Assembly: GCF_016863135.1 (NCBI RefSeq)
Contig: NZ_BOOH01000057.1
Coordinates: 1 to 64,000, forward strand
Length of the DNA: 64,000 nt
From: Planobispora longispora
GTDB taxonomy: Bacteria > Actinomycetota > Actinomycetes > Streptosporangiales > Streptosporangiaceae
Direction of reading: 5' to 3'
The notes beneath the pieces were generated by a model, which was not told the DNA's origin, searched no databases, and worked only from the letters and a program-made list of their open reading frames with translations. Made by a program: the position numbers and the translations under genes. Numbering within the stretch: the stretch's first letter is position 1; every line of letters starts with the position of its first letter. Shown one piece after another: positions 25,582 through 43,393 of the stretch.

Positions 25582-27579
25582 TCACGCCGACAGCCGCCGG
25601 GCCAGTTCCTCGCCCTGCTTGCGCAGGTGCGGCGGGAGCGCCGGGTCGAGCGCGCCGAGTGCCCGTGAGACCAGCTCCGCGGCCTTGGCCTCCCGGCCGA
25701 GCAGGGCGTTGACGCGGGCGGCCCGGAGCATGACCGGCCCGCTGCCGGACTCCGCGGCGAGGGCGTCGAGCATCTCCTGCTCGGCCGCGTCGAACCGTCC
25801 CGCCAGGGCGAGCGCCAGCGCCCGCGCCGCGACCGTGCCGGGCTCCTGGTTCTCCCGCACCCGGTTCAGATCCCGCAGAGCCTCCGAGGCCATGTCCATG
25901 TCCGCGTGGATCTCTCCGCGCAGGGCGAGGGCCTCGGCCGGCGGCCGGTCCGCGAGCGCCAGGGTGCCGTTGAGGAAGGTGAGAGCGGCACGCGGCTGTC
26001 CCAGCCGCCAGAGAGCCTGTCCGAGGGCCAGCTGGGTGGGCGGGTCGTTGGGCGCCCAGCTGAGCGCCGATTTGAGCACCTCCACGGCCATGGCGTAATC
26101 ACGCTGTGCCAGCCAGAGCAGCCCGTCCGCGGTCAGCGCCCGGGCCACCCCGTCGAACTGCTGAAGCATCGAGAAGGTCTCGGCGGCTTTCCTGAACAGA
26201 TGCCGGGCGGTCACGATCTCGCCTCGCGCGGCCGCGGCCTTGCCCAGGATCTCCTGCGCCTCGGCCTGGACCCACACCTCGTCGAACTCCGCCGCGCGGA
26301 TCGCCTCGTCCGCGAGCTTGCCCGCCGTCTCCCAGTCCTGGCGCGCCAGCGCCGCCCGCGCGTCCACCAGGTAGGTGGCGGGGCGTTCCGGCTGGCGCAC
26401 CGCGGCGATCAGGCGATCGTGCTGCAGCTCGTACCAGCGGGTGCCCAGGCGGTGCTCCGCCTTGAGGAGATGGCAGTCCTCCAGCGCCCTGGCCACGGCG
26501 TTCGGCATGCCGGCCGTCTTCTGGAGCCCTTCGTTGACGATGTGACGCGTCCCGTGCTCGGTCACGAAGTTGTTGCGCAGCCAGTACTGGATCTCGGTCA
26601 CCGGAACACCCTGCTCTGCTGCGACACGGGTGAGGACGTCCTTGCAGAAACCGGTGAGGAACCGGTCGACGTCCACATGCAGGTGGACGTGCTCCTCGGT
26701 GATCTCGGTGAGCTCCGGCGGCAGGGACTCCCACAGCGAGGAGCAGACGATCTGGAGCTGTACGGGTTCGACCACGTCCAGCTCGATTTCGGTGACGCGT
26801 CCCTCGTCGTCGACGATCTCCACGGTGCGCAGATCGTCGATGAGCAGCTCGGCGGCGCCGGGCGCGAAGGAGCGGGCGGTGTACTCCAGAGGCTTGGTCG
26901 CGGCGTCGAGCGCGGCGGCGCGCTTGAGCGGACGCAGGTGGAACCGCGTCCGCGAGCCGTGGCCCAGCGGGCGCTCGTACGGCAGGACCGCGGCCACGTG
27001 CTCTTCGCGCAGGGACAGGAGCAGATGCAGCCCGTCGTGGTCCTCCACCGCCTGCGCCAGCTGTTTCAGCAGGTCCTCCCGCTCCGTCTCCCGCTGGACC
27101 GGGCCGCTGAACAGTTCCTCGGCCTGGTCGATGGCGGCCAGGATGGGGACCGGGTCACCGTACTGGTCGGCTCGCTTCGGACGGCGGTACAGGAACTCGC
27201 TGACCGTCAGCCCGACCACGGAGGACAGCGGCTCCTCCGGCGACCAGGCCGACAACAGCGCCAGGATGTAGGGATTGCCGGGAACCCGCGGCGAGAGCAC
27301 GGTGATCCCTCCTGGTGCCACCCGGGCCACCGGCAGCACGTCGGCGCGCTCGCTGTCGATGCGGGGCAGGATCCCCGCGTTCAGCAGGGAGGTCTTGCCC
27401 ACCCCCGACGCACCGTACAGCACGGTGAGACCGGTGGCCTGCCAGACGGTGGCGATGTCGCGGGACTCCTGCGCGCGTCCGAAGAACAGCGGATGCTCGC
27501 TCTGCTCGTAAGGGCGCAGCCCGACGTACGGCTGGATCGCCCTGTCTTCCCTGCGTGTCGCGGTCGCCACGGCGCTCAC
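25582..27579 (-). CDS. nSTAND1-type ATPase with C-terminal TPR-like repeats (left arm)
   Basis: 665 aa. N-terminal PYVGLRPYEQSEHPLFFGRAQE leads into a P-loop ATPase: Walker A GASGVGKT (K62) and Walker B with the IDQAEELF signature (150-156) typical of novel STAND NTPase 1. A winged-helix-like end reads WYELQHDRLI (~405-414). From about 430 to the end come helical TPR-like repeats (QDWETAGKLADEAIRAAE, RDYAMAVEVLKSALSWAP, QPRAALTFLNGTLALAD). STAND proteins act as ligand-sensing oligomerisation switches. The gene starts with GTG in a GTGA overlap with the SIR2 stop, implying a stoichiometric sensor-effector pair as in known SIR2/STAND antiphage systems. The sensing ligand is unknown; the neighbouring modified peptide is a candidate. 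Confidence 0.88.
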   Translation of the reverse strand: MSAVATATRREDRAIQPYVGLRPYEQSEHPLFFGRAQESRDIATVWQATGLTVLYGASGVGKTSLLNAGILPRIDSERADVLPVARVAPGGITVLSPRVPGNPYILALLSAWSPEEPLSSVVGLTVSEFLYRRPKRADQYGDPVPILAAIDQAEELFSGPVQRETEREDLLKQLAQAVEDHDGLHLLLSLREEHVAAVLPYERPLGHGSRTRFHLRPLKRAAALDAATKPLEYTARSFAPGAAELLIDDLRTVEIVDDEGRVTEIELDVVEPVQLQIVCSSLWESLPPELTEITEEHVHLHVDVDRFLTGFCKDVLTRVAAEQGVPVTEIQYWLRNNFVTEHGTRHIVNEGLQKTAGMPNAVARALEDCHLLKAEHRLGTRWYELQHDRLIAAVRQPERPATYLVDARAALARQDWETAGKLADEAIRAAEFDEVWVQAEAQEILGKAAAARGEIVTARHLFRKAAETFSMLQQFDGVARALTADGLLWLAQRDYAMAVEVLKSALSWAPNDPPTQLALGQALWRLGQPRAALTFLNGTLALADRPPAEALALRGEIHADMDMASEALRDLNRVRENQEPGTVAARALALALAGRFDAAEQEMLDALAAESGSGPVMLRAARVNALLGREAKAAELVSRALGALDPALPPHLRKQGEELARRLSA

Positions 27580-28490
27580 CCCATTCTGCGCCGGATTTGC
27601 TCACAGAACTCCGACGCGGTGCCGAGGAAGATCGAGATGTTCCAGCCGTTGAGATAGTGGGTCAGGTATCGCCTCGCCTTGTCGGCCGCGTCGCCCGGCG
27701 AGACGCTGACCTCCGGCATCATCTGCACGCTGACGTGCCTGCGCTGGTTGCTGCGCGGGGTGCTGCGCGCCAGGCCGTGGAAGAGCACCCGGAACGTCCA
27801 GTCCTGCAGGCTGTAGCCGATGAAGAGCAGCGGGTGGAACGTCATCGCCCGGAGGACCGGAATCGGCAGCGGGTGCTTGCCGTCGTTCGCCGCCGCGTCG
27901 ACCATGTTGACGAGGTAGGTGAGGTAGTCGGACTCGGTCAGCACCAGTGAGGAGGGCTGGTGCCAGGAGCCGTGCAGGTGATAGACGAGGGGCCGGTCCG
28001 CGGTGGGCTCCGGGAGACCGACCTCGTCGGTCGCGTCCCGGTGCCAGTGGGAGGCGGTGGTGCGCGGTTTCTTGCCGCCGGTCGTGTCCATCTGCCAGGG
28101 GGAGATGGCGCTGTGCGGCTGCTTGCCCATCGCGTTGAGGGCTTCGACGAGGAAGTCGTCGTAGTTCGTGGTGAGAAACGTCTGCAGGGGAAACTTCGCC
28201 AGCAGGGCATGAGGGTTGGCGGGATCGTGCGGGGACGGCCGCCGGTACGACTGGAGCTCGTCGCAGACCTTTCCCTTGAGGTACACCGGATCCCGGACGA
28301 CCGACTCGGTGTACTGCATGACGCGAGCGAGGTTGTGGTCGTCGGTGAACGGATAACCGTAGCGGGCCGCGAAGATCTTGCTCAGCGTGGTGCCGGTGGG
28401 AAGTGTCAGACTGGCTCCCGCACCGAGGAAGGGCGTGCACTCACCTTTGTGGAGTTGGTCGACCAACCTCCGCCAGTCCTCCTCGTCCAC
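27576..28490 (-). CDS. SIR2-like NADase candidate (left arm)
   Basis: 304 aa SIR2_2-type Rossmann protein. FLGAGAS at 21-27 is the nucleotide-binding loop; TTNYDDF has the catalytic-type asparagine N109; YHLHGS has the catalytic-type histidine H173; LLFIGYSLQDWTFRVLF is the conserved C-terminal strand and helix of this subfamily. Both catalytic residues are kept, so NAD+ hydrolysis is plausible, as shown for SIR2 domains of ThsA, DSR and Avs-like defence proteins. The GTG start has AGGGTGG just upstream. It lies 76 nt after the FxSxx precursor and overlaps the STAND gene by four bases, so the three form one operon. No TM segment or signal peptide; cytoplasmic. Confidence 0.88.
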   Translation of the reverse strand: MDEEDWRRLVDQLHKGECTPFLGAGASLTLPTGTTLSKIFAARYGYPFTDDHNLARVMQYTESVVRDPVYLKGKVCDELQSYRRPSPHDPANPHALLAKFPLQTFLTTNYDDFLVEALNAMGKQPHSAISPWQMDTTGGKKPRTTASHWHRDATDEVGLPEPTADRPLVYHLHGSWHQPSSLVLTESDYLTYLVNMVDAAANDGKHPLPIPVLRAMTFHPLLFIGYSLQDWTFRVLFHGLARSTPRSNQRRHVSVQMMPEVSVSPGDAADKARRYLTHYLNGWNISIFLGTASEFCEQIRRRMG

Positions 28491-28566
28491 CGTGCCACCC
28501 TGAGTGTCGAGAAATGGATCCCTTATAACACTCTATGTCCCACACCGGTGGCGCCGGAGTCAAGAT

Positions 28567-28743
28567 TTACAAGGCTGAGGAGAAGCCTGCCACGGGGCCG
28601 ACGTCCTGAGCGTCAAGCAATCGTGCCAATGCGACGTCAAGGCTCGACTCGGAAATGTTGTCGAGATCATCAAGAGTGTAGGCGCTTACGTCAATCAAGC
28701 CGCTCTTGTACTCGTCGGCACCGGTGCGAGACTCCTCGCTCAT
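28567..28743 (-). CDS. fxsA: FxSxx-COOH ribosomal peptide precursor (left arm)
   Basis: 58 aa, acidic leader, ending ...VAGFSSAL-stop, which fits the FxSxx-COOH family definition exactly (F-S-S-A-L at the C-terminus). The leader has L-D-D-L-D-N-I-S-x-x-x-L-x-x-A-L, which aligns with the right-arm peptide. I chose the ATG at 28743 because GGGGGAG lies 6 nt upstream; a GTG at 28758 has no ribosome site. In this family the radical SAM enzyme FxsB modifies the C-terminal F-x-S stretch, and related maturases make three-residue cyclophanes from an aromatic residue to the residue two places on. It is the first gene of the precursor-SIR2-STAND operon and diverges from FxsT. Confidence 0.9.
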   Translation of the reverse strand: MSEESRTGADEYKSGLIDVSAYTLDDLDNISESSLDVALARLLDAQDVGPVAGFSSAL

Positions 28744-29005
28744 GTGGCTCCCCCGCACTGTGGCATAGGCGTTCTAAAAGGCGCGGAGCCTTTGAATGGC
28801 GGCGCGCGCGTTATCGTACTCGCTTTCTTTCCACCGTGCCACCTCCTCCTAACTGTGGAGTTTCGTGTCTCAACCAGGAGAAGAGGAAGGGTTTGCGTGG
28901 TTTGTGGTCACGTGGAAGCCGCACGGGAATCTGGCGTCGTGACCCATGCGCTTTCGCGGCCGGGAGTTTAAGATGATCTCGAATCGAGCGAGCGGAGGCG
29001 GTCGC
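28744..29005. promoter_or_regulatory. Divergent control region, left arm
   Basis: 262 nt between the outward precursor-SIR2-STAND operon and the inward FxsT gene. It is mixed in composition, with AT-richer patches near the precursor (TTCTAAAAG) and around 28900 (GTTTGCGTGGTTTGTGGTC). No clear operator seen. The right arm has the equivalent divergent gap at 39983-40161. Confidence 0.5.
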
Positions 29006-31573
29006 ATGCCGATTTCCCCATCGTCGGACTCCTCCCGGGCACTGACGGCGCAGCCTCAGGTCTGGGGCAAGGTGCCGCAGCGGAACAGGAACTTCACCGG
29101 GAGGGAGGATCTCCTGGAGAAACTGCGCGCGGGGGTCACCTCCGACGTCACGGCGGTCGTCTCCCTGCAGGGTTCCCTGATCTCCGAAGGCATCGGGGCT
29201 CTCCAGGGGTACGGAGGAGTCGGCAAGACGCAGGTCGCCATCGAGTACGCCTACCGGTTCCAGCACGAATACGACCTGGTGTGGTGGATCCCGGCGGACC
29301 AGCCGATGCTCGTGCGTGCGGCCCTGGCGAGTCTCGCGCCGCGTCTCGGGCTGCCCTCGGCCAGCTCCGCGGGCATCGAGGACGCCGCCATGAGCGTGCT
29401 GGACGCGTTGCGCAGGGGAGAGCCCTACTCCAGATGGCTGCTCATCTTCGACAACGCCGAGCAGCCCGAGAGCCTGGAAGGCATGATTCCGCACGGCCCG
29501 GGACACGTGCTGATCACTTCCCGCAACCACGCCTGGCAGGGAGAGGTCGGCACCGTTCCCGTCGACGTCTTCACCCGGCCCGAGAGCATCGCGTTCCTGC
29601 AGAGGAGGGTCGTCAAGGGCATCAGCACCGAGGACGCGGACCGGCTGGCCGAGAAGCTGGGGGACCTGCCGCTGGCGCTCGAGCAGGCCGGGGCGCTCCA
29701 CGCCGAGACGGGCATGTCGGTGGACGAGTACCTGCGGCTCCTGGACGAGCACGCGGGCCAGCTGCTCGATGCCAGCAAACCCTCGGACTACCCGCTGTCG
29801 ATGACGGCCGCGTGGTCGTTGTCGGTGTCCCAGCTGGCGGCGAAGCTGCCCGAAGCGGTGGATCTCCTGCGCTGCTGCGCGTTCTTCGGGCCCGAGCCCA
29901 TCCCGCGAGACGTCTTCGGGACGCTCGACGAGGAGTTCATGGCCCAGTCGCGCCTCAAGGAACTGCTGGGCAACGCGCTCCAGCTGAGCAAGGCGATCAG
30001 AGAACTGGGCCGCTACGCCCTCGCCCGCATCGACTCGGGGAGCCGGACCATCCAGGTCCACCGGCTCGTCCAGGCCCTCCTGCGTGACGAGGTGGGAGAG
30101 GAGGACCGCCCGGCGTTCCGGCACGAGGTGCATCTCCTGCTGACGGCCGCGGTGGCGAAGCACCGGCCGGACGACGCCGAGAGCTGGCCCCGCTACGGGG
30201 CGCTGCTCGGTCACGTGACCCCTGCCCGGGTGAAGCGGTGCCAGGAGCCCTCCGTCCGCCGCTTCGCCCTCAACATGGTGCGCTACCTCTACTCCTCGGG
30301 CGACTACCGGTCCGCGCGCGACCTCATCCAGGAACTCCTCGGGGAGTGGGAGGTCGTCAGCGGAGCCGACGACGAGTCGGTGCTCCTGGCGCAGGGGCAG
30401 CTCGGCATCGTCCTGCGTGAACTCGGTGCCTACGCGGAGGCTTTCGAGATCAATCAGGAGACCCTGTCCCGGATGCAGACGGTCCTCGGGCCGAGACACG
30501 AGGAGACCGTCCTCCTCACCAACAGCCACGGTGCGGACTTCCGGACGCGCGGCGACTTCGCCGCGGCCCTGGAGCACGACCGGAGATCGCTGGCCCTGCA
30601 CCGGGAGAAGTTCGGAGAGGACGACGCCGGGACACTGCGTGCCATGAACAACCTCGCCGTCGACTACCTGCTGGTCGGTGACTACGCGCAAGCCTTCGAG
30701 CTCCAGAACGAGGCTTTCAGCAGATACTCCCGGAGCCGGGAGTCCAATCAGCAGGCGAAGCTCATCGCCTGGAACGGCCTGGCCCGCATCGTACGGCTGA
30801 GGGGCAACTACCTCGAGGCCTGTGACGTGGGCGAGGACGCCCACGAGTTCGGCCTGCTGGAACTGGGCGCCGACCATCCCTGGACGCTGCGGACGGCCAA
30901 GGACCTCTCCATCGCCAAACGGCGGGCCGGACTGATCGACGAGGCGTTCGAGATCGCAGAGCAGACGTTCGACCGTGAGGAGCGCCTGTTCGGTCCCGAC
31001 CACCCCGACACGCTGGCCACCGCTCTCTGCCTGGCCAACACGCTGCGCACCATGGGCCGGGTGGCCGAGGCGCTGGAGCTGCTGCGGGACACCGCTGATC
31101 GATATGAGCGGGTCTTCGGGGCGGACCATCCCTTCAAGCACGGCTGCGACATGAACCTCGCCCTGCTCCTGCGGGTCAACGGCGACGTCGAGGAGGCCCG
31201 CCGCCTCGACCAGAAGTCCCTGGACGGGTTCGACAGCGGACTCGGCCGCGACCACCACTACTCCCTGACCTGCGCCATCAATCTGGCCAGCGACTACGCC
31301 ACGCTGGGAGACAACGACGAGGCGCGGAGGCTCGGCGAGGACACCCTGGACAAACTGCGCAGCCTCCTGGGAGAGGACCATCCGCTGACGCTGGCCTCGG
31401 CCGCGAACCTGGTGGTGGACCTGCGAGCGGGCGGCGAGGTGGATCGGGCCGAAGCTCTGGAGGACGACACCATCAACCGCTACCGGGAGGTGCTGGGTGA
31501 GGACCACCCCGACGCCCGGGCGGCGCGGGCGCGCGAGCGGCTCGACTTCGACTTCGACCCGCCCGCACTCTGA
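29006..31573 (+). CDS. fxsT: FxSxx-COOH system NB-ARC/TPR protein (left arm)
   Basis: 855 aa. N-terminal WGKVPQRNRNFTGREDLL is the signature opening of the FxSxx-COOH system tetratricopeptide repeat proteins. An NB-ARC-type STAND ATPase follows: Walker A GYGGVGKT (K74), YDLVWWIPAD, Walker B RWLLIFDNAE, HVLITSRN sensor, GDLPLALEQA. From about 400 to the end there are many ~42-residue TPRs of the kinesin-light-chain type (LGPRHEETVLLTNSHG, FGEDDAGTLRAMNNLAVDY). I prefer the ATG at 29006, with GGAGG 7 nt upstream and an N-terminus matching the right-arm paralogue; in-frame ATGs at 28973 and 28946 are possible. Expected to sense or scaffold rather than modify. It converges on the modifying enzyme with a 50-nt gap. 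Confidence 0.9.
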   Translation: MPISPSSDSSRALTAQPQVWGKVPQRNRNFTGREDLLEKLRAGVTSDVTAVVSLQGSLISEGIGALQGYGGVGKTQVAIEYAYRFQHEYDLVWWIPADQPMLVRAALASLAPRLGLPSASSAGIEDAAMSVLDALRRGEPYSRWLLIFDNAEQPESLEGMIPHGPGHVLITSRNHAWQGEVGTVPVDVFTRPESIAFLQRRVVKGISTEDADRLAEKLGDLPLALEQAGALHAETGMSVDEYLRLLDEHAGQLLDASKPSDYPLSMTAAWSLSVSQLAAKLPEAVDLLRCCAFFGPEPIPRDVFGTLDEEFMAQSRLKELLGNALQLSKAIRELGRYALARIDSGSRTIQVHRLVQALLRDEVGEEDRPAFRHEVHLLLTAAVAKHRPDDAESWPRYGALLGHVTPARVKRCQEPSVRRFALNMVRYLYSSGDYRSARDLIQELLGEWEVVSGADDESVLLAQGQLGIVLRELGAYAEAFEINQETLSRMQTVLGPRHEETVLLTNSHGADFRTRGDFAAALEHDRRSLALHREKFGEDDAGTLRAMNNLAVDYLLVGDYAQAFELQNEAFSRYSRSRESNQQAKLIAWNGLARIVRLRGNYLEACDVGEDAHEFGLLELGADHPWTLRTAKDLSIAKRRAGLIDEAFEIAEQTFDREERLFGPDHPDTLATALCLANTLRTMGRVAEALELLRDTADRYERVFGADHPFKHGCDMNLALLLRVNGDVEEARRLDQKSLDGFDSGLGRDHHYSLTCAINLASDYATLGDNDEARRLGEDTLDKLRSLLGEDHPLTLASAANLVVDLRAGGEVDRAEALEDDTINRYREVLGEDHPDARAARARERLDFDFDPPAL

Positions 31574-34194: not shown

Positions 34195-34866
34195 TATCAG
34201 CCTCCGTGTGGAACCGTGTTAATGGCACGCCCGAAAAGGGAGCACAGAAGAGGAAAAACGAGCAAGTCTACACTAATGGGTGTATCCAGCGGGTGTATCG
34301 CGCCGAGGGCACGACGAGGTAACGGCATCGGAGCCTAGCGGCTCAGGGAAACCGTGCGAATGAGAGTAGTGCATCAGGGGTAGGGGCATGCTCGTTGGAC
34401 CCCTGAGGCGAACTATGTGGCGTCCAAAAATAGCTTTATGGACATCCCTTATCTGGATGGCCTGGTGATTTTTTCAATGGTGAAGTCTTGCTTTGTATTG
34501 GTTTATCCGGAACCCTTGTGGCCGCTGCAGTCTGTCGATGGCGGTTCTCACACACTTGTGTCGTTTAATTGCGATCTTGGTGGTGGCGCCTCTGGTGATC
34601 GCGTGAGGCGATGCGGGTAGTTCGGATCGGTTGGTGGGTCTGGTGGCGATCGGCACGCCAACCTCACTGATTTCTGTCTAGCGCTCGACGTGGCCATCGC
34701 AGCATACGGATGCCAAGGGCAGTGTGTTCACGGGCCCCCTTGAGGTCGTCTACCTGCTGATCACGTTGTGTCTCCCCGATGGCCATGAAAGGGCTGAGTG
34801 GGAAACTGTCCGGCATTCCGTCCCTGATCTCAGGATGTAGGGGGAGACACTGGTCAAAGAGGGGGT
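34195..34866. other. Central spacer of the mirror island
   Basis: 672 nt between the two divergent radical SAM genes, the longest gene-free stretch of the island and clearly lower in GC than the flanks (for example 34430-34500 and 34560-34600). It must hold both radical SAM promoters. Short open frames here (for example minus 34474-34656) show no recognisable domain and no FxSxx terminus. No transposase, tRNA or long inverted repeat was recognised, though the composition suggests a scar of the event that joined the two arms. Confidence 0.6.
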
Positions 34867-36114
34867 GTGGCACCGTTGCTCGATGATCCTGAACTTGAAA
34901 ATCTGCCGCCCGGAAACGCGTTTCCGGCCACGCTTGATGTAGATGGCCTTCTTACCTCGGGATGGAGGCCTCTCTCTTTTTGCCAGTTCGTTCTGAAGAT
35001 TCACAGTAACTGCGATCTTTCCTGTGACTACTGCTACATGTACGAAATGGTCGACCAGTCCTGGAGAACGCAGCCCCGCCGCATGTCCGAGACGACCGTG
35101 GACTGTACGGCGCGGCGTATCGCCGAACACGCCGCTGTGCATGAACTGGCTGAGGTGGAAGTGATCTTGCATGGCGGGGAGCCGCTGCTGGCCGGGCCGG
35201 ACTTCATCTCCTACGCCGTACGCGTGATCAGGACCGAGGTCGCCGACGTCGGAACACGCGTCCGAGTGAGCATACAGACCAACGGGCTCCGCCTCGACGA
35301 GGCGTTCCTGCGGCTCTTCGAGCACCTGGAGATCCGGGTGGGGGTGAGTCTGGACGGTGACGAACAGGCGCAGGACCGGCATCGGAGGTTCTTCAACGGG
35401 AAGGGAAGCCACACGGCGGTCTCGGCCTCGCTCCGCCGCCTGGCCTCCGGCCCCTTCCACCACCTGTTCAGCGGGCTGCTCTGCACTATCGACATCCGCA
35501 ACGACCCGCTGGCGACCTACGAGGCGCTTCTCGCTTTCGATCCCCCGGCGATCGACTTCCTACTTCCGCACGGCAACTGGGTCACGCCCCCGCCCTTCCG
35601 AGATCCGGACTCGTCCGCCACGCCGTACGCCGACTGGCTGATTCCGATCTTCGACCGGTGGTACGGATCTCCGTCGCAGGAGACGGAGATCCGGTTCTTC
35701 ACAGAGATCATGCGCCTGCTGCTGGGGCAGGACTCCCGCACCGAGACGGTGGGGCTGTCACCGGTGAGGATGGCCGTCATCGAGACCGACGGCAGCATCG
35801 AGCAGTCGGACATCCTGAAGTCCAGCTACCCCGGGGCCGCCGCAACCCGGATGCACATCCTGCGCGACTCGTTCGACGCGGTCCTCCGGCATCCCGCGAT
35901 CGTGGCGCGGCAGATAGGGGAGCGTGCGCTCTCACCGGTGTGCCGTGGCTGCGACATCGTCTCCGTCTGCGGCGGGGGCCTGTACGCCCATCGTTACAGC
36001 ACCACCGGGGGCTTCCTGGGACCGTCGGTCTACTGCCCCGACCTCCACCGGCTCATCACGCACATCCGCGCGAGAGTACTCCGCGACATCAGCCGTCTGA
36101 AGGGGAGCCGATGA
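34867..36114 (+). CDS. fxsB: Radical SAM/SPASM peptide maturase FxsB (right arm)
   Basis: 415 aa, paralogous to residues 1-~405 of the left-arm fusion. SAM-cluster cysteines C49, C53, C56 in CDLSCDYC; HGGEPLLAG; SIQTNGLRL; GVSLDGD; C-terminal CRGCDIVSVCGGGLYAHRY; SVYCPDLHRLITHI end. The GTG start lies right behind AAAGAGGGGG; the protein begins ~15 residues earlier than its left-arm counterpart, so a later start is possible. The stop overlaps the ATG of the HExxH gene (ATGA) after AGGGGAG. Expected to act on the F-S-S-S-F tail of the right-arm precursor, encoded about 4 kb away. Confidence 0.92.
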   Translation: MAPLLDDPELENLPPGNAFPATLDVDGLLTSGWRPLSFCQFVLKIHSNCDLSCDYCYMYEMVDQSWRTQPRRMSETTVDCTARRIAEHAAVHELAEVEVILHGGEPLLAGPDFISYAVRVIRTEVADVGTRVRVSIQTNGLRLDEAFLRLFEHLEIRVGVSLDGDEQAQDRHRRFFNGKGSHTAVSASLRRLASGPFHHLFSGLLCTIDIRNDPLATYEALLAFDPPAIDFLLPHGNWVTPPPFRDPDSSATPYADWLIPIFDRWYGSPSQETEIRFFTEIMRLLLGQDSRTETVGLSPVRMAVIETDGSIEQSDILKSSYPGAAATRMHILRDSFDAVLRHPAIVARQIGERALSPVCRGCDIVSVCGGGLYAHRYSTTGGFLGPSVYCPDLHRLITHIRARVLRDISRLKGSR

Positions 36115-37472
36115 AGCTCATACCGCGCCAGGTCTCCGACAAGACGTTCACCGAGCTGGCAGCGGGCGGGGGAGGGGCCGAGGCGGTCGAAGAACTGCGA
36201 GCCTGGCAGCGGATCAAGACCATGATGCTGGTGCGCGGCGTCGTCGAGGAGTCGAGAGAGACCGATCACCCCCACGCCGAGCTGGCAGCTCGTACCTACC
36301 GCCTTCTGGTGGAACTGGAACCCCCGGCGGTCGACGACGTGCTGAGACATCCCGCCGCGGGGGCGTGGGCGTGGCGTGCCTACCGGTCGCTGCGCGGGGG
36401 AACGCCCGCGGAGGAGGACCCGGGGCGGCTGGGCACCCTGGCCGTGGCGGCCGCGATCAGGGCACAGAAGGCCTGCGAAGTGCGCATACCGGTCAGGGGG
36501 AGGACGCTCATGCTGCCATCACTGGGAGAGGTGACTCTCCCCTCCGGCCTCGACGGTGCCGCCGATGTCGCCGTCCGGCCGGACGGGGCCGGAGCCGTCC
36601 TCGGCATCGGCGGATCCGTGGTCCGGGTGGACCCGTCCGGAGATGGGACCGGCTGGCGGGCTCTGCACGGGCTCCCGGTGGTCCCGGGCTTCACCTTGGT
36701 CGTCGACGACCTCGACCCCTACCGGTGGCCGAATGGCGGTGAGGTGGAAACACGGATGACACTCCAGCAGCGCCGTACCTGGCAGTCACGTCTGAACGGC
36801 GCCTGGCGCATCCTGGCAGACAACCACTGGACCGTCGCGGAGGAGGTCACCGCGGCGATCCGCGTACTCACCCCGATCAAGCAACCGATCTTCGGCCAGA
36901 AGAGCGCGAGTGCGAGTGAGACGTTCGGGACGATCGCGCTCTCCGCACCCCGGCACAGCCTCGGCTTCGCGGCCACATTCGCGCATGAGATCCAGCACGC
37001 GAAGCTCAGGGCGCTGACCGACATGGTGGCCCTGACCCGGCCGGACGACGGGCGGCGTTATTACGCCCCGTGGAGACCCGACCCCCGTCCCGCCTACGGG
37101 CTGTTGCAGGGGGTGTACGCGTTCCTGGGCGTGGCGGATTTCTGGCGTCGCCAGATCGGTGCCGAGCGGGGGGCCGCGGCGTTCCGGGGACAGGTCGAAC
37201 TGGTCCGGTGGCGTGAGGGGGCTCACCTGGTCACCGGCACGCTCCTGGAGAGCGGGAGCCTGACGGAGCGGGGCCGGGAGTTCGTCACCGGAGTGAGGTG
37301 CGCGCTGGAGTCCCTGTTCCAGGAACCGGTGGACCTCGCGGCGGCCGGGCAGGCTCACCGGGAGGCCGCCTGGCACCGGGAGGAGTGGCTCCGCCACAGC
37401 GCTCATGCTGGGGCTGTACGGGGTCAGATCGGCGGCGGATCGAAGTCGCAGTCGACGCGCCGCCCCTCGTAG
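36111..37472 (+). CDS. HExxH-type peptide beta-hydroxylase candidate (right arm)
   Basis: 453 aa, equivalent to the C-terminal half of the left-arm fusion (MKLIPRQVSDKTFTELAAGGGG against MNLREHRISRKVFLELASGGGG). The metal motif is HEIQH at 292-296 inside FAHEIQHAKLRALTDM, followed by RRYYAPWRPDPRP. Members are called HEXXH-motif or alphaKG-HExxH peptide modification proteins and pair with radical SAM enzymes at FxSxx loci. Translation is coupled to the radical SAM gene by ATGA. The 3' end overlaps the convergent FxsT gene by 49 nt. Confidence 0.9.
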   Translation: MKLIPRQVSDKTFTELAAGGGGAEAVEELRAWQRIKTMMLVRGVVEESRETDHPHAELAARTYRLLVELEPPAVDDVLRHPAAGAWAWRAYRSLRGGTPAEEDPGRLGTLAVAAAIRAQKACEVRIPVRGRTLMLPSLGEVTLPSGLDGAADVAVRPDGAGAVLGIGGSVVRVDPSGDGTGWRALHGLPVVPGFTLVVDDLDPYRWPNGGEVETRMTLQQRRTWQSRLNGAWRILADNHWTVAEEVTAAIRVLTPIKQPIFGQKSASASETFGTIALSAPRHSLGFAATFAHEIQHAKLRALTDMVALTRPDDGRRYYAPWRPDPRPAYGLLQGVYAFLGVADFWRRQIGAERGAAAFRGQVELVRWREGAHLVTGTLLESGSLTERGREFVTGVRCALESLFQEPVDLAAAGQAHREAAWHREEWLRHSAHAGAVRGQIGGGSKSQSTRRPS

Positions 37473-39982
37473 ACCGCGACGAGGTCGGGGGGATCCGTCG
37501 CGGATCCCCCGGGCGGGTCGAAACGGCGCCTCGTGTCGGAGTGGAGCAGGTCGGCCTCCTCATCGGCGCCCACTGCCCTCAGGTCGAGGATGAGATTGGA
37601 GGTGCAGATGAGCGTCAGATGATGGTCAGGACCGAAGACCTTGCGGAGCCTCTCCAGAGTTTCCTCACCGATTTCCCGCGCCCGGGCCGGTTCTCCCAGC
37701 GTGGCGAGATCCGTGGCGAGGTTGACGGCACAGGTCAGCGAGTAGTGGTGTCTCCGGCTCAGTTGGGCTGCCAGGCGTTCCAAGGCCGCCTCATCGATGG
37801 TCCGGGCACGGTCGGCGTCCCCTCGCAGCCGGTACAGGATCGCCAGGTTGATCCGGCAGGCATGGGTGAAGGGGTGCTCCTCGCCGAACACCTCGGGATA
37901 GCGGCGTACGGTCCCCTCCGCGATCATGAATGCCTCGTCGGTCTCCCCAGCGGTGCGCAGGGTGTTGGAGACGTTGATCGCGGCGGCCATCGTGTCGGGG
38001 TGGCCGTCCCCCAGGATCCGCTTGAGCCGGACGTGGGTCTCGCGGGCGAGTTCCAGGGCCTCGGCGAGGTTGCCCGCCCTGCGTCGCGCGATAGACAGGT
38101 CCCGGGCAGCGTGCAGGGTGGTGGGGTGGTCGGGGGACAACCGCTGAAGGCCGTACTCGTAAGCCTCGTCTCCCAGGTCACAGGCTTCTTTGTAGTCACC
38201 GGAGAGCCGTACGGACCTGGCCAGTCCGTTCAACGACAGCAGGAACGCGTTCTCACTGACGCCCTCCCGCACGTTGCTCTGCCCCCGGTACGCGTCTCGG
38301 TGCAGGTCCCGCGAGCGCGCGTAGTCACTGGTGAGGGCGTAATCAAGGGCGAAATTGTGCAGGGCGCGCAGGGTCATCGGGTTCTCCCGCCCGAAAAGCC
38401 GCTCATGAGCCGCCAGGGTTTCCTCATCCAGTTCCCGGGCGGGGAGGAACTCACCGCGGGCACGCAGGGAGCCCCCGTAGCCGGCGGCCGCCCACAGGGT
38501 CTCGGGGTGCTCGGGCCCGAGGGCGTCCCGCATTTCCCGCAAGGTCTTGCCGGTGCTCTCGTAGTCCTCGGTGTACCGGCCGAGCCCCCGCAGGATGTTG
38601 CCACGATGCACCCGCGCCACCAGGACATCCTTGTGCCTTGGCCCGTCGGCCGCCGTCCACCTGCCGATGAACTCGTCCACGAAGCCGAGGGCGGGCTGGT
38701 AACTCCCCGCCTGGTAGAGGTAGCGGACGCTGTTCAGAGCGAACTCGCGGACTCTCGGATCGGTGCACTCCGCCAGCCCGGAAGGGATGATGTGCGCCAC
38801 CAGTTCGTTGAACTCACTCCACTTGCCGGTGGTCTCGGGAGAGGCCGGGGCGGCGCCCGCCAGCAGCAGATGAACCTCGTGGCGGGCCTTGGCCCGCTCC
38901 TCCTCGGGCAGATCGTCGCGGAGCAGTGCCTGGACGAGGCGGTGGACTTGGATCGTCCGGGTCTCGGGGTCGATCCGGGCCAGGGCGAAGCGCCGCAGTT
39001 CGCCCAGTGTCTTGCTCAGCATGATGGGATCGGACAGAACCGCGGCGAGCTGGGAGGCGCCGGGGCCGTCCTCCCGGAGCAGGACTTGGTTGCCTCTGCG
39101 GAACACGTCTCTGGGGATCGGCTCGGGACCGAAGAAGGCACAGCACCGCAGCACCTTGATCGCTTCGGGTAGGCGATCCTCCAGCAGCGAGACCGACACC
39201 CTCCAGGCGGCGGTCATCGACATCGGATATCCCGGCGCCCGGTTCGCACTCAACAGGTTGCGTGTCTGCCTGTCGAGCTGCTCGATGTACTCGTCGATCG
39301 CCATGCCGGTCTCGTACTGCAGCGCGCCGGCCTGTTCCAGTGCGAGCGGAAGATCTCCCAGCCTGTCGGCGAGGACGGAGGAGTCCTTCGCCGGGATATC
39401 ACGGTGCAGGCGTTTCCTGAGGAACTCCAGGCTCTCCTCCCGGTCGAACACGTCGACCTGGAGGGTCTCGAAGTGGTTCTCCCAGTGGGGGTTACGCGAG
39501 GTGATCAGGACGTGGCCGGGGCCCCGGGGGATGAACTCCTCGATCTGGCCGGGCTCCTCGGCGTTGTCGAAGATCAGCAACCACTTGCGGTACGGCTCGC
39601 CGCTCTCCAACGCCCTGCGTACCGCGTCGGCCGCCTCCTCCACACCCGTAGCGGAGGCCGGGGGCAGCCCGAGGTGAGGCGCCATCGCCGCGAGTGCCGA
39701 CGGGACCAGAACACGCTGGTCGGAGGGGATCCACCAGACGAGATCGTAGTGCGACCGGTAACGCCAGGCGTACTCGACGGCGAGATGGGTCTTGCCGACA
39801 CCGCCCAGGCCTTGGAGCGCCTGGGGCTGCGGGACGACGGCTGTCACCGTATTGGCTTTGTGACGTAGCCTGCCGAGAAGCTCCTCACGGCCGGTGAAGT
39901 TCCGGTTACGCGGTGGGACTTTCTCCCACACCTCTGGCTGCCGGTCCCGCATCGAATGCGTCGCTTGTGAAGGCTCCGTCAC
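37424..39982 (-). CDS. fxsT: FxSxx-COOH system NB-ARC/TPR protein (right arm)
   Basis: 852 aa paralogue of the left-arm protein at 29006. EVWEKVPPRNRNFTGREELL opening; Walker A GLGGVGKT (K64); YDLVWWIPSD; KWLLIFDNAE; HVLITSRN; GDLPLALEQA; then TPRs with repeated LGPEHPETLWAAAGYG / FGRENPMTLRALHNFALDY type units. GTG start with GGAGGT five bases upstream. Transcribed toward the centre and against the HExxH gene, with overlapping 3' ends; divergent from the precursor operon. Likely role as for the left copy: regulated NTPase sensor or scaffold in the cytoplasm. Confidence 0.9.
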   Translation of the reverse strand: MTEPSQATHSMRDRQPEVWEKVPPRNRNFTGREELLGRLRHKANTVTAVVPQPQALQGLGGVGKTHLAVEYAWRYRSHYDLVWWIPSDQRVLVPSALAAMAPHLGLPPASATGVEEAADAVRRALESGEPYRKWLLIFDNAEEPGQIEEFIPRGPGHVLITSRNPHWENHFETLQVDVFDREESLEFLRKRLHRDIPAKDSSVLADRLGDLPLALEQAGALQYETGMAIDEYIEQLDRQTRNLLSANRAPGYPMSMTAAWRVSVSLLEDRLPEAIKVLRCCAFFGPEPIPRDVFRRGNQVLLREDGPGASQLAAVLSDPIMLSKTLGELRRFALARIDPETRTIQVHRLVQALLRDDLPEEERAKARHEVHLLLAGAAPASPETTGKWSEFNELVAHIIPSGLAECTDPRVREFALNSVRYLYQAGSYQPALGFVDEFIGRWTAADGPRHKDVLVARVHRGNILRGLGRYTEDYESTGKTLREMRDALGPEHPETLWAAAGYGGSLRARGEFLPARELDEETLAAHERLFGRENPMTLRALHNFALDYALTSDYARSRDLHRDAYRGQSNVREGVSENAFLLSLNGLARSVRLSGDYKEACDLGDEAYEYGLQRLSPDHPTTLHAARDLSIARRRAGNLAEALELARETHVRLKRILGDGHPDTMAAAINVSNTLRTAGETDEAFMIAEGTVRRYPEVFGEEHPFTHACRINLAILYRLRGDADRARTIDEAALERLAAQLSRRHHYSLTCAVNLATDLATLGEPARAREIGEETLERLRKVFGPDHHLTLICTSNLILDLRAVGADEEADLLHSDTRRRFDPPGGSATDPPDLVAVYEGRRVDCDFDPPPI

Positions 39983-40308: not shown

Positions 40309-40493
40309 GGATTGATCCTCCTCTCAGAAGGGTCGCCGAATCGGAAAAGCGCGGATGCGATGCCCGCTCGGGCCTATCGCGTCGATGGGCTGGGCGAGGC
40401 ATCGCCTCCAAGCGAGGCTGGCCTCGTCACCGGGTGTGTACGGCATCCAGTTCATGATCTTCTGGACCCTCGGCTGGTGAGGTGGTGCCGTGC

Positions 40494-41390
40494 ATGCATG
40501 ACATGGTGGACGCCGACTGGGAGAGGTTGCTCCACCAGTTGGAGAGCGGAGACTGCACGCCTTTTCTCGGACCCGGCGCATGCACGGGTACCCTCCCCGC
40601 TGGAAGTGCACTCAGCCGGCGGCTGGCGAAGAAATGGGGTTACCCCTACGGCGACGACCACGAGCTTCCCCGGGTGGCGCAATTCGCGTTGATAAAATAC
40701 GGCGACGCCGTGTACGTCAAGAACATGATCTGCAGCGAGCTGGGTGCTTCGGGCCTGCCGGACTTCCAGGATCTCCTGGAGCCGCACGGCCTGCTCGCGA
40801 ATTTTCCGCTCCCCGTCTACCTGACCACGAACTACGACGATTTCATCGTTCAATCACTGAAGGCCGTGGGAAAACGCCCGAACCCGGCGCTCTGCCCCTG
40901 GAACGCGGACGTGCCCTATGCCGGGGACCTCTTCAGCCGGGAGGACGGCTGGAATCCACAGGCGGACCGGCCTCTTGTCTATCACCTGCACGGCAGCCTT
41001 CGTGATCCGGTGTCGATCGTGGTCGCCGAGGATGACTATCTGGAGTTCCTCACCAACCTCGCACTTGACAGCGCTGGCCGCAAGCAGATGTTGCCTCCTT
41101 CCATCCTGGCGGCGCTGACCAAGCGATCCCTGTTGTTCGTCGGCTACAGCCTGAAGGATTGGACTTTCCGCGTCCTGTTCCGGGGATTGCTGAGAGCGGT
41201 ACCGGGAATCAACCGGCGCAGGCACGTGAGCATCCAGCTCGAGCCCACGCCCGATCCCAGGAAAGCGAACCTTCGCGAGGTGAAGCATCACCTGGCGAGG
41301 TATTACGAGGGTTGGCAGATCTCCGTCTTCTGGGGGTCTTCCGAGCAGTTCTGCGGGGAACTGCGACGACGGATGGGGTCGGTTCAGTGA
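40494..41390 (+). CDS. SIR2-like NADase candidate (right arm)
   Basis: 298 aa, paralogue of the left-arm SIR2 protein. TTNYDDF and YHLHGS are intact, as is LLFVGYSLKDWTFRVLF. The nucleotide loop is FLGPGAC instead of FLGAGAS, so the usual small residue and the serine are both changed. The start is uncertain: ATG 40494 with TGAGG ~11 nt upstream is taken, GTGs at 40482/40485 and ATG 40503 are possible. Its TGA overlaps the STAND GTG (GTGA) exactly as in the left arm. Expected effector of the right-arm operon. Confidence 0.87.
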   Translation: MHDMVDADWERLLHQLESGDCTPFLGPGACTGTLPAGSALSRRLAKKWGYPYGDDHELPRVAQFALIKYGDAVYVKNMICSELGASGLPDFQDLLEPHGLLANFPLPVYLTTNYDDFIVQSLKAVGKRPNPALCPWNADVPYAGDLFSREDGWNPQADRPLVYHLHGSLRDPVSIVVAEDDYLEFLTNLALDSAGRKQMLPPSILAALTKRSLLFVGYSLKDWTFRVLFRGLLRAVPGINRRRHVSIQLEPTPDPRKANLREVKHHLARYYEGWQISVFWGSSEQFCGELRRRMGSVQ

Positions 41391-43393
41391 ATCCGGACAA
41401 TGTTTACGTGGGGACGGCTCAGCCGTATGTGGGGCTGAGGGCGTTCCGCCGGGAGGACGCCTCCCGATTCTTCGGACGGGCCAGGGAGTCCCACGAGGTC
41501 TGCGATCTGTGGCACGCCAACCGGCTGACCGTTCTCTACGGGCCGTCCGGGGTGGGGAAGACGTCGCTCATTCAGGCGGGTGTGCTGCCGCTGCTCGACC
41601 CCACCCGGGTGGACATTCTGCCGATCGGCCGGGTCTCCCACGGCTCACCGTTCCCGACTGCTGCGCTGTCCGACCACAATCCGCACGTGTTCGCCCTGCT
41701 GTCGTCCTGGTCCCCGGAGGAGATCCCCACCCGGCTGGCGGGTCTGACGCTCCGCGAGTTTCTGCGGAGAAGGCCGCGGCGTGAGGATCCGTACGGTGAC
41801 CCGGTGCTCACCATGGCCGCGATCGACCAGGCGGAGGAATTGTTCGGTGGCTTCGCGCACCGCCACTCGTACCGCGAGTGGTTCATCAGCCAACTGGTCG
41901 AGGCATTGGACGGCGACCCGCACCTCAGGCTTCTCGTGTCGATCCGGGAAGATTACCTGGCCGCGATTCTCCCGCACGAGCCCAAGCTGGCGGGAATAGC
42001 TCGAGGAAGATTCCCGCTGGCTCCCCTGGAAACACCTGCGGCGGTGCTGGCGACCAAGGGGCCGATCGACGGCAGCGGGCGGGTGTTCGCCGAGGGCGCA
42101 GCGGAGAAGCTGGTGGAGGGCCTGCGCGTGATCAAGTTAGGCGGAGTGCTCGGTCAGGAGGTTTTCGCGGACACCAAGATGGTCGAACCCGTGCAGCTCC
42201 AGGTCGTCTGTTCCACCATGTGGCGATCCCTGCCCTCCGATGTGCGGATCATCACGTCCGAGCACGTCCTCCAGTTTGCGAACGCGGACCGTTCTCTCAC
42301 CGACTTCGTCGAACATATGATCGCGGAGGTGGCCCGTGATTGCCTGGGCGGTGATACCGAGCGACTGAGAGAATGGTTGCGCCGGAACTTCATCACGGAG
42401 TTCGGCACGTGTGAGACCGTCTATCAAGGTGAGACGCTGACGGCGGGCGAACAGAACTACGTGATTCGCGCCCTTGTGGAACGCCACATCCTCCGCGAAG
42501 AGGTCAAAGCAGGCACTCGATGGTGTGAACTGTCCCACGAGCGGCTCATCGCGCCGATCCTCCAGAAAGAGCAAGCTGTCGAGCAGGCCGAGAACCGGAT
42601 AGCCCCGAGCGAGCACCTGCGCGCCGCCGAACTCGCGCTCCGTGACGGGGAATTCGTGCTGGCGGAGAAACAAGCCGAGGAAGCGCTGGCACGATGTGGT
42701 GACAACACCTGGCTCCACGCGGAGATCCAGTCTTTCCTCGGAAATGTCGCACACCGGCGTGAGAATTTCGACAAGGCGATAACCCACTACCGTGACGCCG
42801 CGGTCCTGTTCGAGACGCTGGGAGCCACCTCGGCCGTCGGCCGGTTACTCGCCGGGATCGGCCGCCTCCGCCTGGCCCAGGGAAAACCTTCGGTGGCGGT
42901 CCGGGAACTGGTCTCCGCGATCAGCCACCTCTCTGATGACATGAATATCCAGATCGAGCTCGCCTGGGCGCTGTGGTACGACGGACACCCCGACGCGGCC
43001 CAGGATGTTCTCAACGACGTGCTGGGCAAGGAGGGGAACGCGCTGGAGGCGCTGAGGGCACGGGCTGAAATTCTGACCCATCTCGGTCAGGCCGACGCCG
43101 CGTTGCGTGACTTCGCGCGGGTCCGGCCGCTGCAACGGCCCTCAACCCGGGCGGCGTACGCTCTCGCGCTGGCTTCCCTGGGACGTTTCCCCGAAGCGAA
43201 ACGGGAGATCGCGGGAGTGCTGGCCGAGGCGGGAGATCACGGTCCGGTGCTGCTCTACGCCGCCCGGATCAGAGCACTGGATGGTGACCCGGAAGGGGCC
43301 GCCAAGCTGGCTGGACAGGCGAAGACGGCGATGGCGCCGACGCTTCCCGCTCATCTGGCGGCGGAGGCGAACCGTCTGATCCGACCGTCATGA
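41387..43393 (+). CDS. nSTAND1-type ATPase with C-terminal TPR-like repeats (right arm)
   Basis: 668 aa, paralogue of the left-arm STAND protein. PYVGLRAFRREDASRFFGRARE opening, Walker A GPSGVGKT (K58), Walker B IDQAEELFGG, winged-helix end WCELSHERLI, then TPR-like repeats to the C-terminus. The start is the GTG of the GTGA overlap; an upstream open frame runs inside SIR2 but lacks homology. The conservation of the overlap in both diverged arms argues that balanced SIR2:STAND synthesis matters. Confidence 0.87.
   Translation: MNPDNVYVGTAQPYVGLRAFRREDASRFFGRARESHEVCDLWHANRLTVLYGPSGVGKTSLIQAGVLPLLDPTRVDILPIGRVSHGSPFPTAALSDHNPHVFALLSSWSPEEIPTRLAGLTLREFLRRRPRREDPYGDPVLTMAAIDQAEELFGGFAHRHSYREWFISQLVEALDGDPHLRLLVSIREDYLAAILPHEPKLAGIARGRFPLAPLETPAAVLATKGPIDGSGRVFAEGAAEKLVEGLRVIKLGGVLGQEVFADTKMVEPVQLQVVCSTMWRSLPSDVRIITSEHVLQFANADRSLTDFVEHMIAEVARDCLGGDTERLREWLRRNFITEFGTCETVYQGETLTAGEQNYVIRALVERHILREEVKAGTRWCELSHERLIAPILQKEQAVEQAENRIAPSEHLRAAELALRDGEFVLAEKQAEEALARCGDNTWLHAEIQSFLGNVAHRRENFDKAITHYRDAAVLFETLGATSAVGRLLAGIGRLRLAQGKPSVAVRELVSAISHLSDDMNIQIELAWALWYDGHPDAAQDVLNDVLGKEGNALEALRARAEILTHLGQADAALRDFARVRPLQRPSTRAAYALALASLGRFPEAKREIAGVLAEAGDHGPVLLYAARIRALDGDPEGAAKLAGQAKTAMAPTLPAHLAAEANRLIRPS

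What the first reader, a model, noticed from the sequence alone, without database searches (positions are those of the whole stretch)
25582..43393. Mirror-image pair of FxSxx-COOH / SIR2-STAND gene sets
Two diverged copies of the same gene set face each other with identical order and orientation in both arms (radical SAM + HExxH, FxsT, precursor, SIR2, nSTAND1). FxSxx-COOH loci are known as RiPP-like systems; a perfect inverted pair with SIR2-STAND genes built into each arm is not something I can recall. It looks like one system kept as a heterodimeric or two-specificity pair.
Basis: partly seen in the sequence, partly recalled or inferred. Interest (0 to 1): 0.93.

Follow-up and report, generated by a model that had tools for sequence, protein, structure and literature searches.

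The report
Paired mirror-image RiPP and SIR2 cassettes
Two old, related gene cassettes, each predicted to make a small cross-linked peptide together with immune-receptor-like proteins and an NAD-destroying enzyme, sit head to head in this soil actinomycete and in relatives, which suggests a bacterial cell-defence system built around a modified peptide.

Summary
Window 25582-43393 carries two arms facing away from a shared centre: radical SAM FxsB, aKG-HExxH hydroxylase, antiparallel FxsT (NB-ARC-TPR), FxSxx-COOH precursor, SIR2, nSTAND1-TPR. FxsB and HExxH are fused on the left, split on the right. Arms share 44-61% protein identity, so this is no recent duplication or assembly artefact. Nor is it chance adjacency: 82 of 107 SIR2 matches in the order lie within 12 kb of FxsB, and SIR2 and nSTAND1 overlap by exactly 4 bases in 33 of 42 arms. 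Trees of five families share one alpha/beta split. The mirror pair recurs in six genomes of three genera; alpha comes and goes at one site, so the arms are not obligate partners. The usual TIR-like FxsC is missing; a SIR2 resembling the NADases ThsA, KomC and DSR2 is there. SIR2-nSTAND1 also occurs without Fxs genes, and FxsT-type NB-ARC-SIR2 fusions exist in relatives. Best reading: a peptide-controlled, NLR-like NAD-depletion defence in which SIR2 replaces TIR, kept as two paralogous cassettes. NAD loss, peptide chemistry and phage defence are inferred. New variant of a known kind.

The parts
25582..27579 (-). alpha arm nSTAND1-TPR protein, 665 aa
   Evidence: PF20703 E=4.9e-30 and TPR_19; Walker A GASGVGKTS, Walker B AIDQAEELF; GTGA overlap with SIR2 stop
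27576..28490 (-). alpha arm SIR2_2 protein, 304 aa, predicted NADase
   Evidence: PF13289 E=2e-27; PADLOC ThsA model 4.2e-18; AF2 model pLDDT 84 matches ThsA, KomC, DSR2; Asn109 and His173 invariant in 42 of 42 rows
28567..28743 (-). alpha FxSxx-COOH precursor, 58 aa, ends GPVAGFSSAL
   Evidence: TIGR04268 E=2.4e-6, 27.7 bits versus cut-off 28; motif scan
28973..31573 (+). alpha FxsT, NB-ARC-TPR receptor-like protein (start 28973 or 29006), tail DFDPPAL
   Evidence: NF040586 1036.7 bits (on 28946-31573); NB-ARC and TPR; AF2 model of 29006-31573 pLDDT 90
31624..34194 (-). alpha FxsB radical SAM/SPASM fused to aKG-HExxH hydroxylase, 856 aa
   Evidence: TIGR04269 477 bits, TIGR04267 174 bits; CxxxCxxC and HETQH present; PDB ChlB 9gm3
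34195..34866 (.). shared centre between divergent FxsB genes; about 430 bp longer than in four relatives
   Evidence: coordinates and alignment
34867..36114 (+). beta FxsB radical SAM/SPASM, 415 aa
   Evidence: TIGR04269 470.9 bits
36111..37472 (+). beta aKG-HExxH hydroxylase, 453 aa, separate gene overlapping FxsB by 4 bp
   Evidence: TIGR04267 165 bits (on 36096-37472); HEIQH; start
37424..39982 (-). beta FxsT, NB-ARC-TPR (start 39982 or 39952), tail DFDPPPI
   Evidence: NF040586 1030.6 bits
40162..40308 (+). beta FxSxx-COOH precursor, 48 aa, ends IPSAGFSSSF; start inferred from relatives
   Evidence: motif scan; starts and relatives
40503..41390 (+). beta SIR2_2 protein, 295 aa (start could be 40482)
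   Evidence: PF13289 7.6e-27 (on 40482-41390); 49% aligned identity to alpha SIR2
41387..43393 (+). beta nSTAND1-TPR protein, 668 aa
   Evidence: PF20703 1.4e-33 (on 41234-43393); start GTG 41387 overlapping SIR2 stop

Best explanation
The window holds two ancient paralogous copies (alpha, left; beta, right) of one cassette, arranged head to head. In each, FxsB and HExxH modify the C-terminal FxSxx of a small precursor (predicted Phe-x-Ser cyclophane plus beta-hydroxylation). The finished peptide stays in the cell and is read by the TPR domain of FxsT, an NB-ARC switch, and perhaps by nSTAND1-TPR. When infection or stress disturbs that peptide-receptor state, the STAND proteins switch on and release the SIR2, which destroys NAD+ and stops the infected cell. 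SIR2-nSTAND1 replaces the TIR effectors of the usual Fxs system. The two arms are self-sufficient cassettes, kept together probably because they respond to different triggers or back each other up. Shown: gene content, co-inheritance, intact motifs, SIR2 in place of TIR. Inferred: chemistry, peptide sensing, NAD depletion, defence role, direction of the replacement.
For: Family hits. 82 of 107 SIR2 matches within 12 kb of FxsB, 51 of them with FxsB 5.15-5.65 kb upstream on the same strand; of 71 actinobacterial loci, 69 have FxsB or FxsT within 9.5 kb and 65 nSTAND directly downstream; 9 of 11 SIR2 matches in 9 genomes outside the family have FxsB within 8 kb (coordinates, read by hand). SIR2-nSTAND1 overlap of exactly 4 bp in 33 of 42. 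SIR2 Asn and His 42 of 42, HExxH 44 of 44; model matches ThsA, KomC, DSR2. SIR2 fused to an N-terminal half scoring as FxsT. A canonical Fxs locus of a congener has TIR in FxsC and in FxsT; arm proteins have none. SIR2 beside nSTAND1 without Fxs genes. FxsT model matches STAND-TPR 6mfv, Apaf-1 and TPRs solved with C-terminal peptides, APPBP2-degron and KLC1. Same alpha/beta split in five families. Precursor in 12 of 12 arms of six mirror pairs. I saw no further gene conserved inside the arms, so no dedicated exporter.
Against: No experiment. Loci with FxsB, HExxH, FxsT and nSTAND1 but no SIR2 exist (most of L069-L083, fetched for that reason; L125), so SIR2 is not universal and what those arms do is unclear. 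Gene order is not rigid: SIR2 lies upstream of FxsB in L121, FxsB-HExxH lie downstream of nSTAND in loci such as L113-L115 (12 of 82), and FxsA lies beside FxsB in Frankia-type loci. PADLOC models match SIR2 (ThsA and others) and weakly FxsB (viperin), nothing else strongly. SIR2 could be a deacetylase-like enzyme. An exporter or protease could be encoded elsewhere. FxSxx peptides have been proposed as toxins or signals (PMC7159879, section 24 read). No phage trigger is known. Distance correlations partly reflect species history. Many sampled arms gave no recognisable FxSxx precursor in my scan.
Confidence: 0.5

Rival explanations
1. The FxSxx peptide is a secreted or diffusible signal or bacteriocin. 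FxsT is its receptor-regulator, and SIR2-nSTAND1 is a self-protection or kin-recognition module, as in TPR peptide sensors.
For: Kaur 2020 (PMC7159879, section 24 read) proposes a peptide toxin or signal; short C-terminal pentapeptide and TPR sensor are reminiscent of Rap-Phr (recalled). Beta FxsT matches the regulator AfsR far below its cut-off.
Against: No transporter or leader peptidase was seen to be conserved within the arms. SIR2 resembles intracellular defence NADases.
Confidence: 0.22
2. The two arms form one obligate hetero-system in which alpha and beta STAND or SIR2 subunits must assemble together.
For: Mirror pair conserved in six genomes of three genera; alpha-beta pairs also occur in tandem in L117, and in reduced form in L124; in G312 the alpha FxsB has decayed to a remnant of about 120 aa while the rest of the arm stays, so it may use beta FxsB.
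Against: Both types occur alone elsewhere; at the same site Planomonospora sp. ID67723 keeps only beta.
Confidence: 0.12
3. SIR2-nSTAND1 is an independent defence module that merely travels next to Fxs genes, as in a defence island, without mechanistic coupling.
For: SIR2-nSTAND1 occurs without Fxs genes (L195, L200, L204, L205), and Fxs arms occur without SIR2.
Against: The order FxsT, FxsA, SIR2, nSTAND1 recurs across genera with few exceptions; common spacing; correlated distances; SIR2 fused to a protein half that scores as FxsT; across genera the flanking genes vary while the arm does not.
Confidence: 0.14

Closest known systems
Canonical FxSxx-COOH (Fxs) system, as in L126/L127 (relatives) and this genome's own contig C28
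   Same: FxsA precursor, FxsB radical SAM with HExxH-type domain, FxsT with NB-ARC and TPR
   Different: L126 has TIR-like FxsC and an FxsT of 1297 aa with MinD-like and TIR domains (FxsC of C28 was not checked); here no FxsC, a short FxsT lying antiparallel, and added SIR2 and nSTAND1
FxSxx peptide-processing modules of VMAP ternary conflict systems (Kaur 2020, PMC7159879; section 24 and passages read)
   Same: FxSxx peptide, HExxH protein, radical SAM-SPASM, AP-ATPase with TPR
   Different: No vWA/VMAP/MoxR gene among the arm genes; effector is SIR2 with nSTAND1. The main text does not contain the word SIR2
Avs5 (SIR2-nSTAND3-repeats, PMC12931631, passages read)
   Same: SIR2 NADase governed by a STAND NTPase with TPR-like repeats
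   Different: There one polypeptide and nSTAND3; here separate SIR2 and nSTAND1 genes, plus a RiPP pathway and FxsT
Thoeris ThsA, KomC, DSR2
   Same: SIR2 domain is nearest by sequence and fold
   Different: SIR2 protein of 304 aa with SIR2_2 only; SLOG, ThsB, Kom partners and the DSR2 C-terminal region (all recalled) not found in the arm proteins
ChlBH fused rSAM-HExxH (Morishita 2024, paper not held; seen as a reference and in passages of PMC12636437)
   Same: Fusion of cyclophane-forming radical SAM and aKG hydroxylase, as in the alpha arm
   Different: Different context; the product here is unknown
Plant head-to-head paired NLRs such as RRS1-RPS4 (recalled)
   Same: Two divergent STAND receptor sets around a shared promoter region
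   Different: Each arm here is a whole cassette and can occur alone; no sensor/executor split shown

Membership tests
FxSxx-COOH (Fxs) system | precursor ending in FxSxx-COOH | tested here: met
   GFSSAL and GFSSSF at C-termini; TIGR04268 27.7 bits, just under the cut-off of 28, alpha only; beta not run
FxSxx-COOH (Fxs) system | FxsB radical SAM/SPASM | tested here: met
   TIGR04269 over cut-off in both arms
FxSxx-COOH (Fxs) system | FxsT tetratricopeptide protein | tested here: met
   NF040586 over cut-off in both arms
FxSxx-COOH (Fxs) system | TIR-like FxsC | tested here: not met
   no NF040588/TIGR04276 match among the ten arm proteins scanned (listings of the two FxsB were capped at 25 families); present in canonical L126. 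FxsC may not be obligatory, so this marks a variant
FxSxx-COOH (Fxs) system | peptide cross-linked by FxsB | not testable with these tools
   needs mass spectrometry
Avs5 | SIR2 fused to STAND NTPase in one protein | tested here: not met
   separate genes overlapping by 4 bp
Avs5 | nSTAND3 NTPase | tested here: not met
   nSTAND1 PF20703 instead; nSTAND3 not listed
Thoeris | ThsA with SIR2 plus SLOG and a TIR ThsB partner (definition recalled) | tested here: not met
   SIR2 proteins give SIR2_2 only; no TIR among the ten arm proteins
VMAP ternary conflict system | vWA, VMAP and MoxR AAA genes | tested here: not met
   none among the ten arm proteins scanned; the rest of the window was only partly scanned
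NAD-depleting abortive infection | NADase activity on infection | not testable with these tools
   catalytic Asn and His conserved 42 of 42; fold match

The most novel reading that the evidence does not exclude
A bacterial NLR-type immune system licensed by an intracellular cross-linked peptide: modified FxSxx-COOH occupies the FxsT TPR groove in competition with FxsT's own nearly invariant C-terminal tail (D-F-D-P-P-x-I/L-COOH), and loss or alteration of the peptide by a phage frees the STAND-SIR2 executioner. The head-to-head alpha/beta arms are the bacterial counterpart of plant paired NLRs, each guarding a different trigger.
Probability: 0.17. Interest if true: 0.93.

Novelty: new variant of a known kind. 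Interest (0 to 1): 0.72.

Why it matters
To my knowledge FxSxx-COOH systems have no demonstrated function. Finding SIR2-nSTAND1 where TIR stands in the canonical system points to NAD+ depletion as the common output, and so turns an unexplained RiPP family into a testable immune hypothesis: a post-translationally cross-linked peptide as ligand of an NLR-like receptor. The conserved head-to-head pair, with natural beta-only relatives at the same site, is a ready-made natural experiment on why receptors are kept in pairs. No paper linking SIR2 with Fxs turned up in the word searches of the open library; most subscription papers were not searchable.

Tried and rejected
Rejected: recent duplication or assembly artefact (arms 44-61% identical; pair present in five other assemblies). 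Rejected: chance adjacency. Apparent loss of HExxH in L091, L131 and L095 was a gene-caller miss (tblastn finds it); in L083 and in the first arm of L103 tblastn finds none, and the G312 alpha FxsB is truly decayed. An apparent a/b conflict in the nSTAND and HExxH trees (2 changes) comes from two FxsT of L124 being assigned the same neighbour gene. Core peptides do not separate alpha from beta, so 'two peptide specificities' could not be supported from the core. Promoter: before beta FxsB a full -35/-10 pattern matched 1 of 11 sequences and the string AACTTGACTA 3 of 11, too weak to claim shared regulation. Plasmid and phage collections: the SIR2 query hit 2 plasmid-collection records (an 11.85 Mb Nonomuraea record and an Ensifer plasmid at 33%) and 1 phage record (23% over 61%); their surroundings were not read. 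The FxsT query hit 13 plasmid-collection records; two were read and showed no SIR2 annotation. Rows set aside: one partial FxsB match; FxsT under 500 aa and under 700 aa; SIR2 under 200 aa and nSTAND under 400 aa; SIR2 under 225 aa; FxsB and HExxH of 300 aa or less; the L112 fusion in SIR2 sets; arms labelled neither a nor b when counting a/b changes; L124 rows. In one search at most six candidates per genome were scored, so the 107 matches are a lower bound. My gene caller is a simple GC-pattern script tuned to high GC; it misses genes, above all in the non-actinomycete loci.
Full report
1. What is there. The two arms hold eleven genes; ten of the eleven proteins were scanned against NCBIfam, Pfam and PADLOC, the beta precursor was not. 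Left (alpha) arm, minus strand: nSTAND1-TPR 25582-27579, SIR2_2 27576-28490, FxSxx-COOH precursor 28567-28743, and fused FxsB-HExxH 31624-34194, with FxsT on the plus strand between precursor and HExxH (28973-31573). Right (beta) arm, plus strand: FxsB 34867-36114, HExxH 36111-37472, precursor 40162-40308, SIR2 40503-41390, nSTAND1 41387-43393, with FxsT on minus (37424-39982). BLASTP identity left to right is 61% (FxsB), 50% (FxsT), 47% (HExxH), 46% (SIR2) and 44% (nSTAND1). The region is lower in GC (62-71% per 2 kb) than the rest of the window (71-78%).

2. It is not chance. A two-row SIR2 profile matched in 65 of 345 genomes of the order; FxsB (TIGR04269) in 241 of 345. All 65 SIR2 genomes have FxsB. 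Of 107 SIR2 matches, 82 have an FxsB within 12 kb (one partial FxsB dropped): 51 have it 5.15-5.65 kb upstream on the same strand, 62 upstream on the same strand at any distance up to 12 kb, and 12 only downstream within 3 kb. Of the 25 without, four that I fetched lie near contig ends with FxsT beside SIR2 (L084, L085, L086, L088); L087 and L109 still have FxsT; L111 has no Fxs gene; L112 is a fusion (below); the rest were not fetched. In a separate collection (best 78 loci of a capped list), 71 are titled as actinobacteria of the family or near it: FxsT near in 67, FxsB near in 56, either in 69, nSTAND directly downstream in 65. A class-wide search (394 genomes, 19 with a match) gave 11 matches in 9 genomes outside the family; 9 have FxsB within 8 kb on the same contig (my reading of coordinates). 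Eight of these loci were fetched: SIR2, nSTAND and FxsT in 8 of 8, HExxH in 7 of 8, FxsB inside the stretch in 6 of 8, with a different gene order in L220 and L223. One contig has the length of a Frankia gtarii record.

3. The arm as a unit. In 63 arms (55 loci) defined around a short FxsT, FxsB was found in 48 (45 opposite in strand to FxsT), SIR2 in 45 (45 opposite; one is the L112 fusion), nSTAND1 in 58 (58 opposite). SIR2 and nSTAND1 overlap by exactly 4 bp in 33 of 42 arms. The sample was partly chosen: 15 loci (L069-L083) because they had FxsB and nSTAND but no SIR2 match, many others because of SIR2. Of the 18 arms without SIR2 in the usual place, 14 are from those 15 loci; the others are L121 (SIR2 lies upstream), L124 (two) and L125. 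Order varies in some: FxsB-HExxH downstream of nSTAND (L113-L115), FxsA beside FxsB (Frankia-type L219, L222, L225). Trees were built for FxsT (61 rows), SIR2 (42) and nSTAND (58), FxsB (45) and HExxH (42), all 'quick' with SH-aLRT. The FxsT tree defines an alpha half (27 rows, support 84) and a beta half (27 rows, support 100), 7 rows in neither. On the other trees the a/b label needs 1 (SIR2), 1 (FxsB), 2 (nSTAND) and 2 (HExxH) changes; the second change in the last two comes from one gene of L124 counted under both labels. Pairwise distances among the five families correlate within each half (20 comparisons, r 0.70-0.96, 0 of 999 shuffles each); shared species history contributes to this. 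So whole cassettes are inherited together, and the split is older than the genera.

4. The mirror pair. It is present in six genomes: the window, Planobispora rosea (L089/L129/L153), Planomonospora parontospora (L131/L148), Streptosporangium amethystogenes (L090/L130/L185), and two genomes of the same genus code as the last (L091, L092). In all six the alpha arm is the fused one, except L092, where the alpha radical SAM part has decayed to a remnant of about 120 residues. All 12 arms have a precursor: nine end exactly in FxSxx; P. rosea alpha ends FSATV, and G313 alpha and P. parontospora beta carry C-terminal extensions. Planomonospora sp. ID67723 (L096/L156) has the same left flank (PKS and F420-dependent monooxygenase, 85-90% identical) and right flank (oxidoreductase, 89-90%) as the window but only the beta arm. 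P. parontospora (both arms) and Planomonospora sp. ID82291 (beta only) give a second such contrast on a different shared left flank; S. amethystogenes and S. saharense a possible third, on right-flank genes of similar size that I did not align. Alpha is thus a discrete cassette that is present or absent. Direct tandem alpha-beta pairs occur in L117 and, reduced, in L124. An obligate heteromer is therefore unlikely; facultative pairing is well supported.

5. The effector. The SIR2 model (pLDDT 84) matches ThsA, KomC and DSR2 with Foldseek probability 1.00 (TM-score about 0.6-0.7 on the query); sequence search gives ThsA and KomC entries first. The NAD-site Asn and the catalytic His are 42 of 42. 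PADLOC scores both SIR2 proteins on ThsA models. Canonical Fxs in a congener (L126) has TIR-like FxsC and an FxsT with MinD-like, TIR, NB-ARC and TPR domains. The scanned arm proteins have neither FxsC nor TIR. Relatives carry proteins whose N-terminal half scores as FxsT and whose C-terminal part is SIR2_2 (L112 and L116; L157, L160, L161; L168 is the same contig as L116). SIR2 with nSTAND downstream and no Fxs gene is seen in L195 (Acrocarpospora, same family), in L200 (Acidimicrobiia), L204 (Planctomycetota) and L205 (Anaerolineales) (nSTAND1 confirmed by Pfam for the last three). Of the 7 loci outside the class, 3 have nSTAND directly downstream and none shows an Fxs gene, but only some have long flanks (L204 20.9 kb) and my caller is weak there. 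Together this says that a SIR2-nSTAND1 module was joined to the Fxs chassis in place of TIR. That direction is inferred.

6. The receptor. The FxsT model (pLDDT 90) matches the STAND-TPR protein 6mfv first, then APPBP2 solved with its C-degron, Apaf-1, and KLC1, including KLC1 with JIP1 and torsinA C-terminal peptides (TM-scores on the query are low, 0.2-0.45, since only parts align). This suggests, and does not show, that FxsT reads the FxSxx C-terminus. FxsT itself ends in a fixed tail: D at -7 in 60 of 60, F at -6 in 59, D at -5 in 58, P at -4 in 59. Of 37 further FxsT called loci (some may be the same genes with another start) 34 fit the pattern; 12 long canonical FxsT end R-D/E-L-E-P-Q-P plus one residue. 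In the model the end is non-helical with pLDDT 93 (841-850) and 84 (851-855), so probably ordered; I had no coordinates. KLC autoinhibition by a cis acidic motif is recalled. Alpha and beta differ more in the TPR half than in the NTPase half (FxsT 48.5% against 60.2%, nSTAND 41.5% against 49.5%), but the same holds within alpha and within beta, so this is weak evidence for different triggers.

7. Mechanism and rivals. I favour an intracellular peptide-controlled, NLR-like switch with NAD+ depletion as output. The chemistry rests on family knowledge (FxsB cyclophane by NCBIfam's name; HExxH as an aKG hydroxylase acting on a preinstalled cyclophane, passages of PMC12636437). Rivals are a secreted signal or bacteriocin, an obligate two-arm complex, and uncoupled neighbours; each has a test above. 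Kaur 2020 (section 24 read) already proposed FxSxx peptide-processing with AP-ATPases as part of conflict systems, so the kind is known; SIR2-nSTAND1 in the cassette, the antiparallel FxsT and the conserved mirror pair are what I add.

Noticed in passing
window 28973-31573 and 37424-39982, C-termini of FxsT: FxsT ends in an almost invariant tail D-F-D-P-P-x-I/L-COOH fixed to the stop codon, with a hydrophobic end like the FxSxx precursor; modelled as ordered in the alpha protein.
   Followed up: partly
L112 5780-8383 and L116 5357-7864: Proteins whose N-terminal half scores as FxsT, with a C-terminal SIR2 domain in place of TPRs.
   Followed up: partly
L092 10043-10381: Alpha FxsB decayed to a remnant while HExxH, FxsT, SIR2 and nSTAND1 of the arm remain.
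   Followed up: partly
window 34195-34866: Centre between the two FxsB genes is about 430 bp longer than in four relatives; origin of the extra DNA unknown.
   Followed up: no
window 1548-24207: NRPS and PKS genes of a biosynthetic cluster close to the alpha arm, with one F420-dependent monooxygenase gene between.
   Followed up: partly
L227 (Streptomyces sp. NBC_01724 plasmid) 5153-12895: FxsT next to an HEXXH protein and a caspase family protein: perhaps another cell-death effector with the same receptor type. The record also carries a predicted qacH label on the HEXXH gene, which looks like a misannotation.
   Followed up: no
L069-L083: Most of these 15 loci keep FxsB, HExxH, FxsT and nSTAND1 but have no SIR2; their effector is unknown.
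   Followed up: partly
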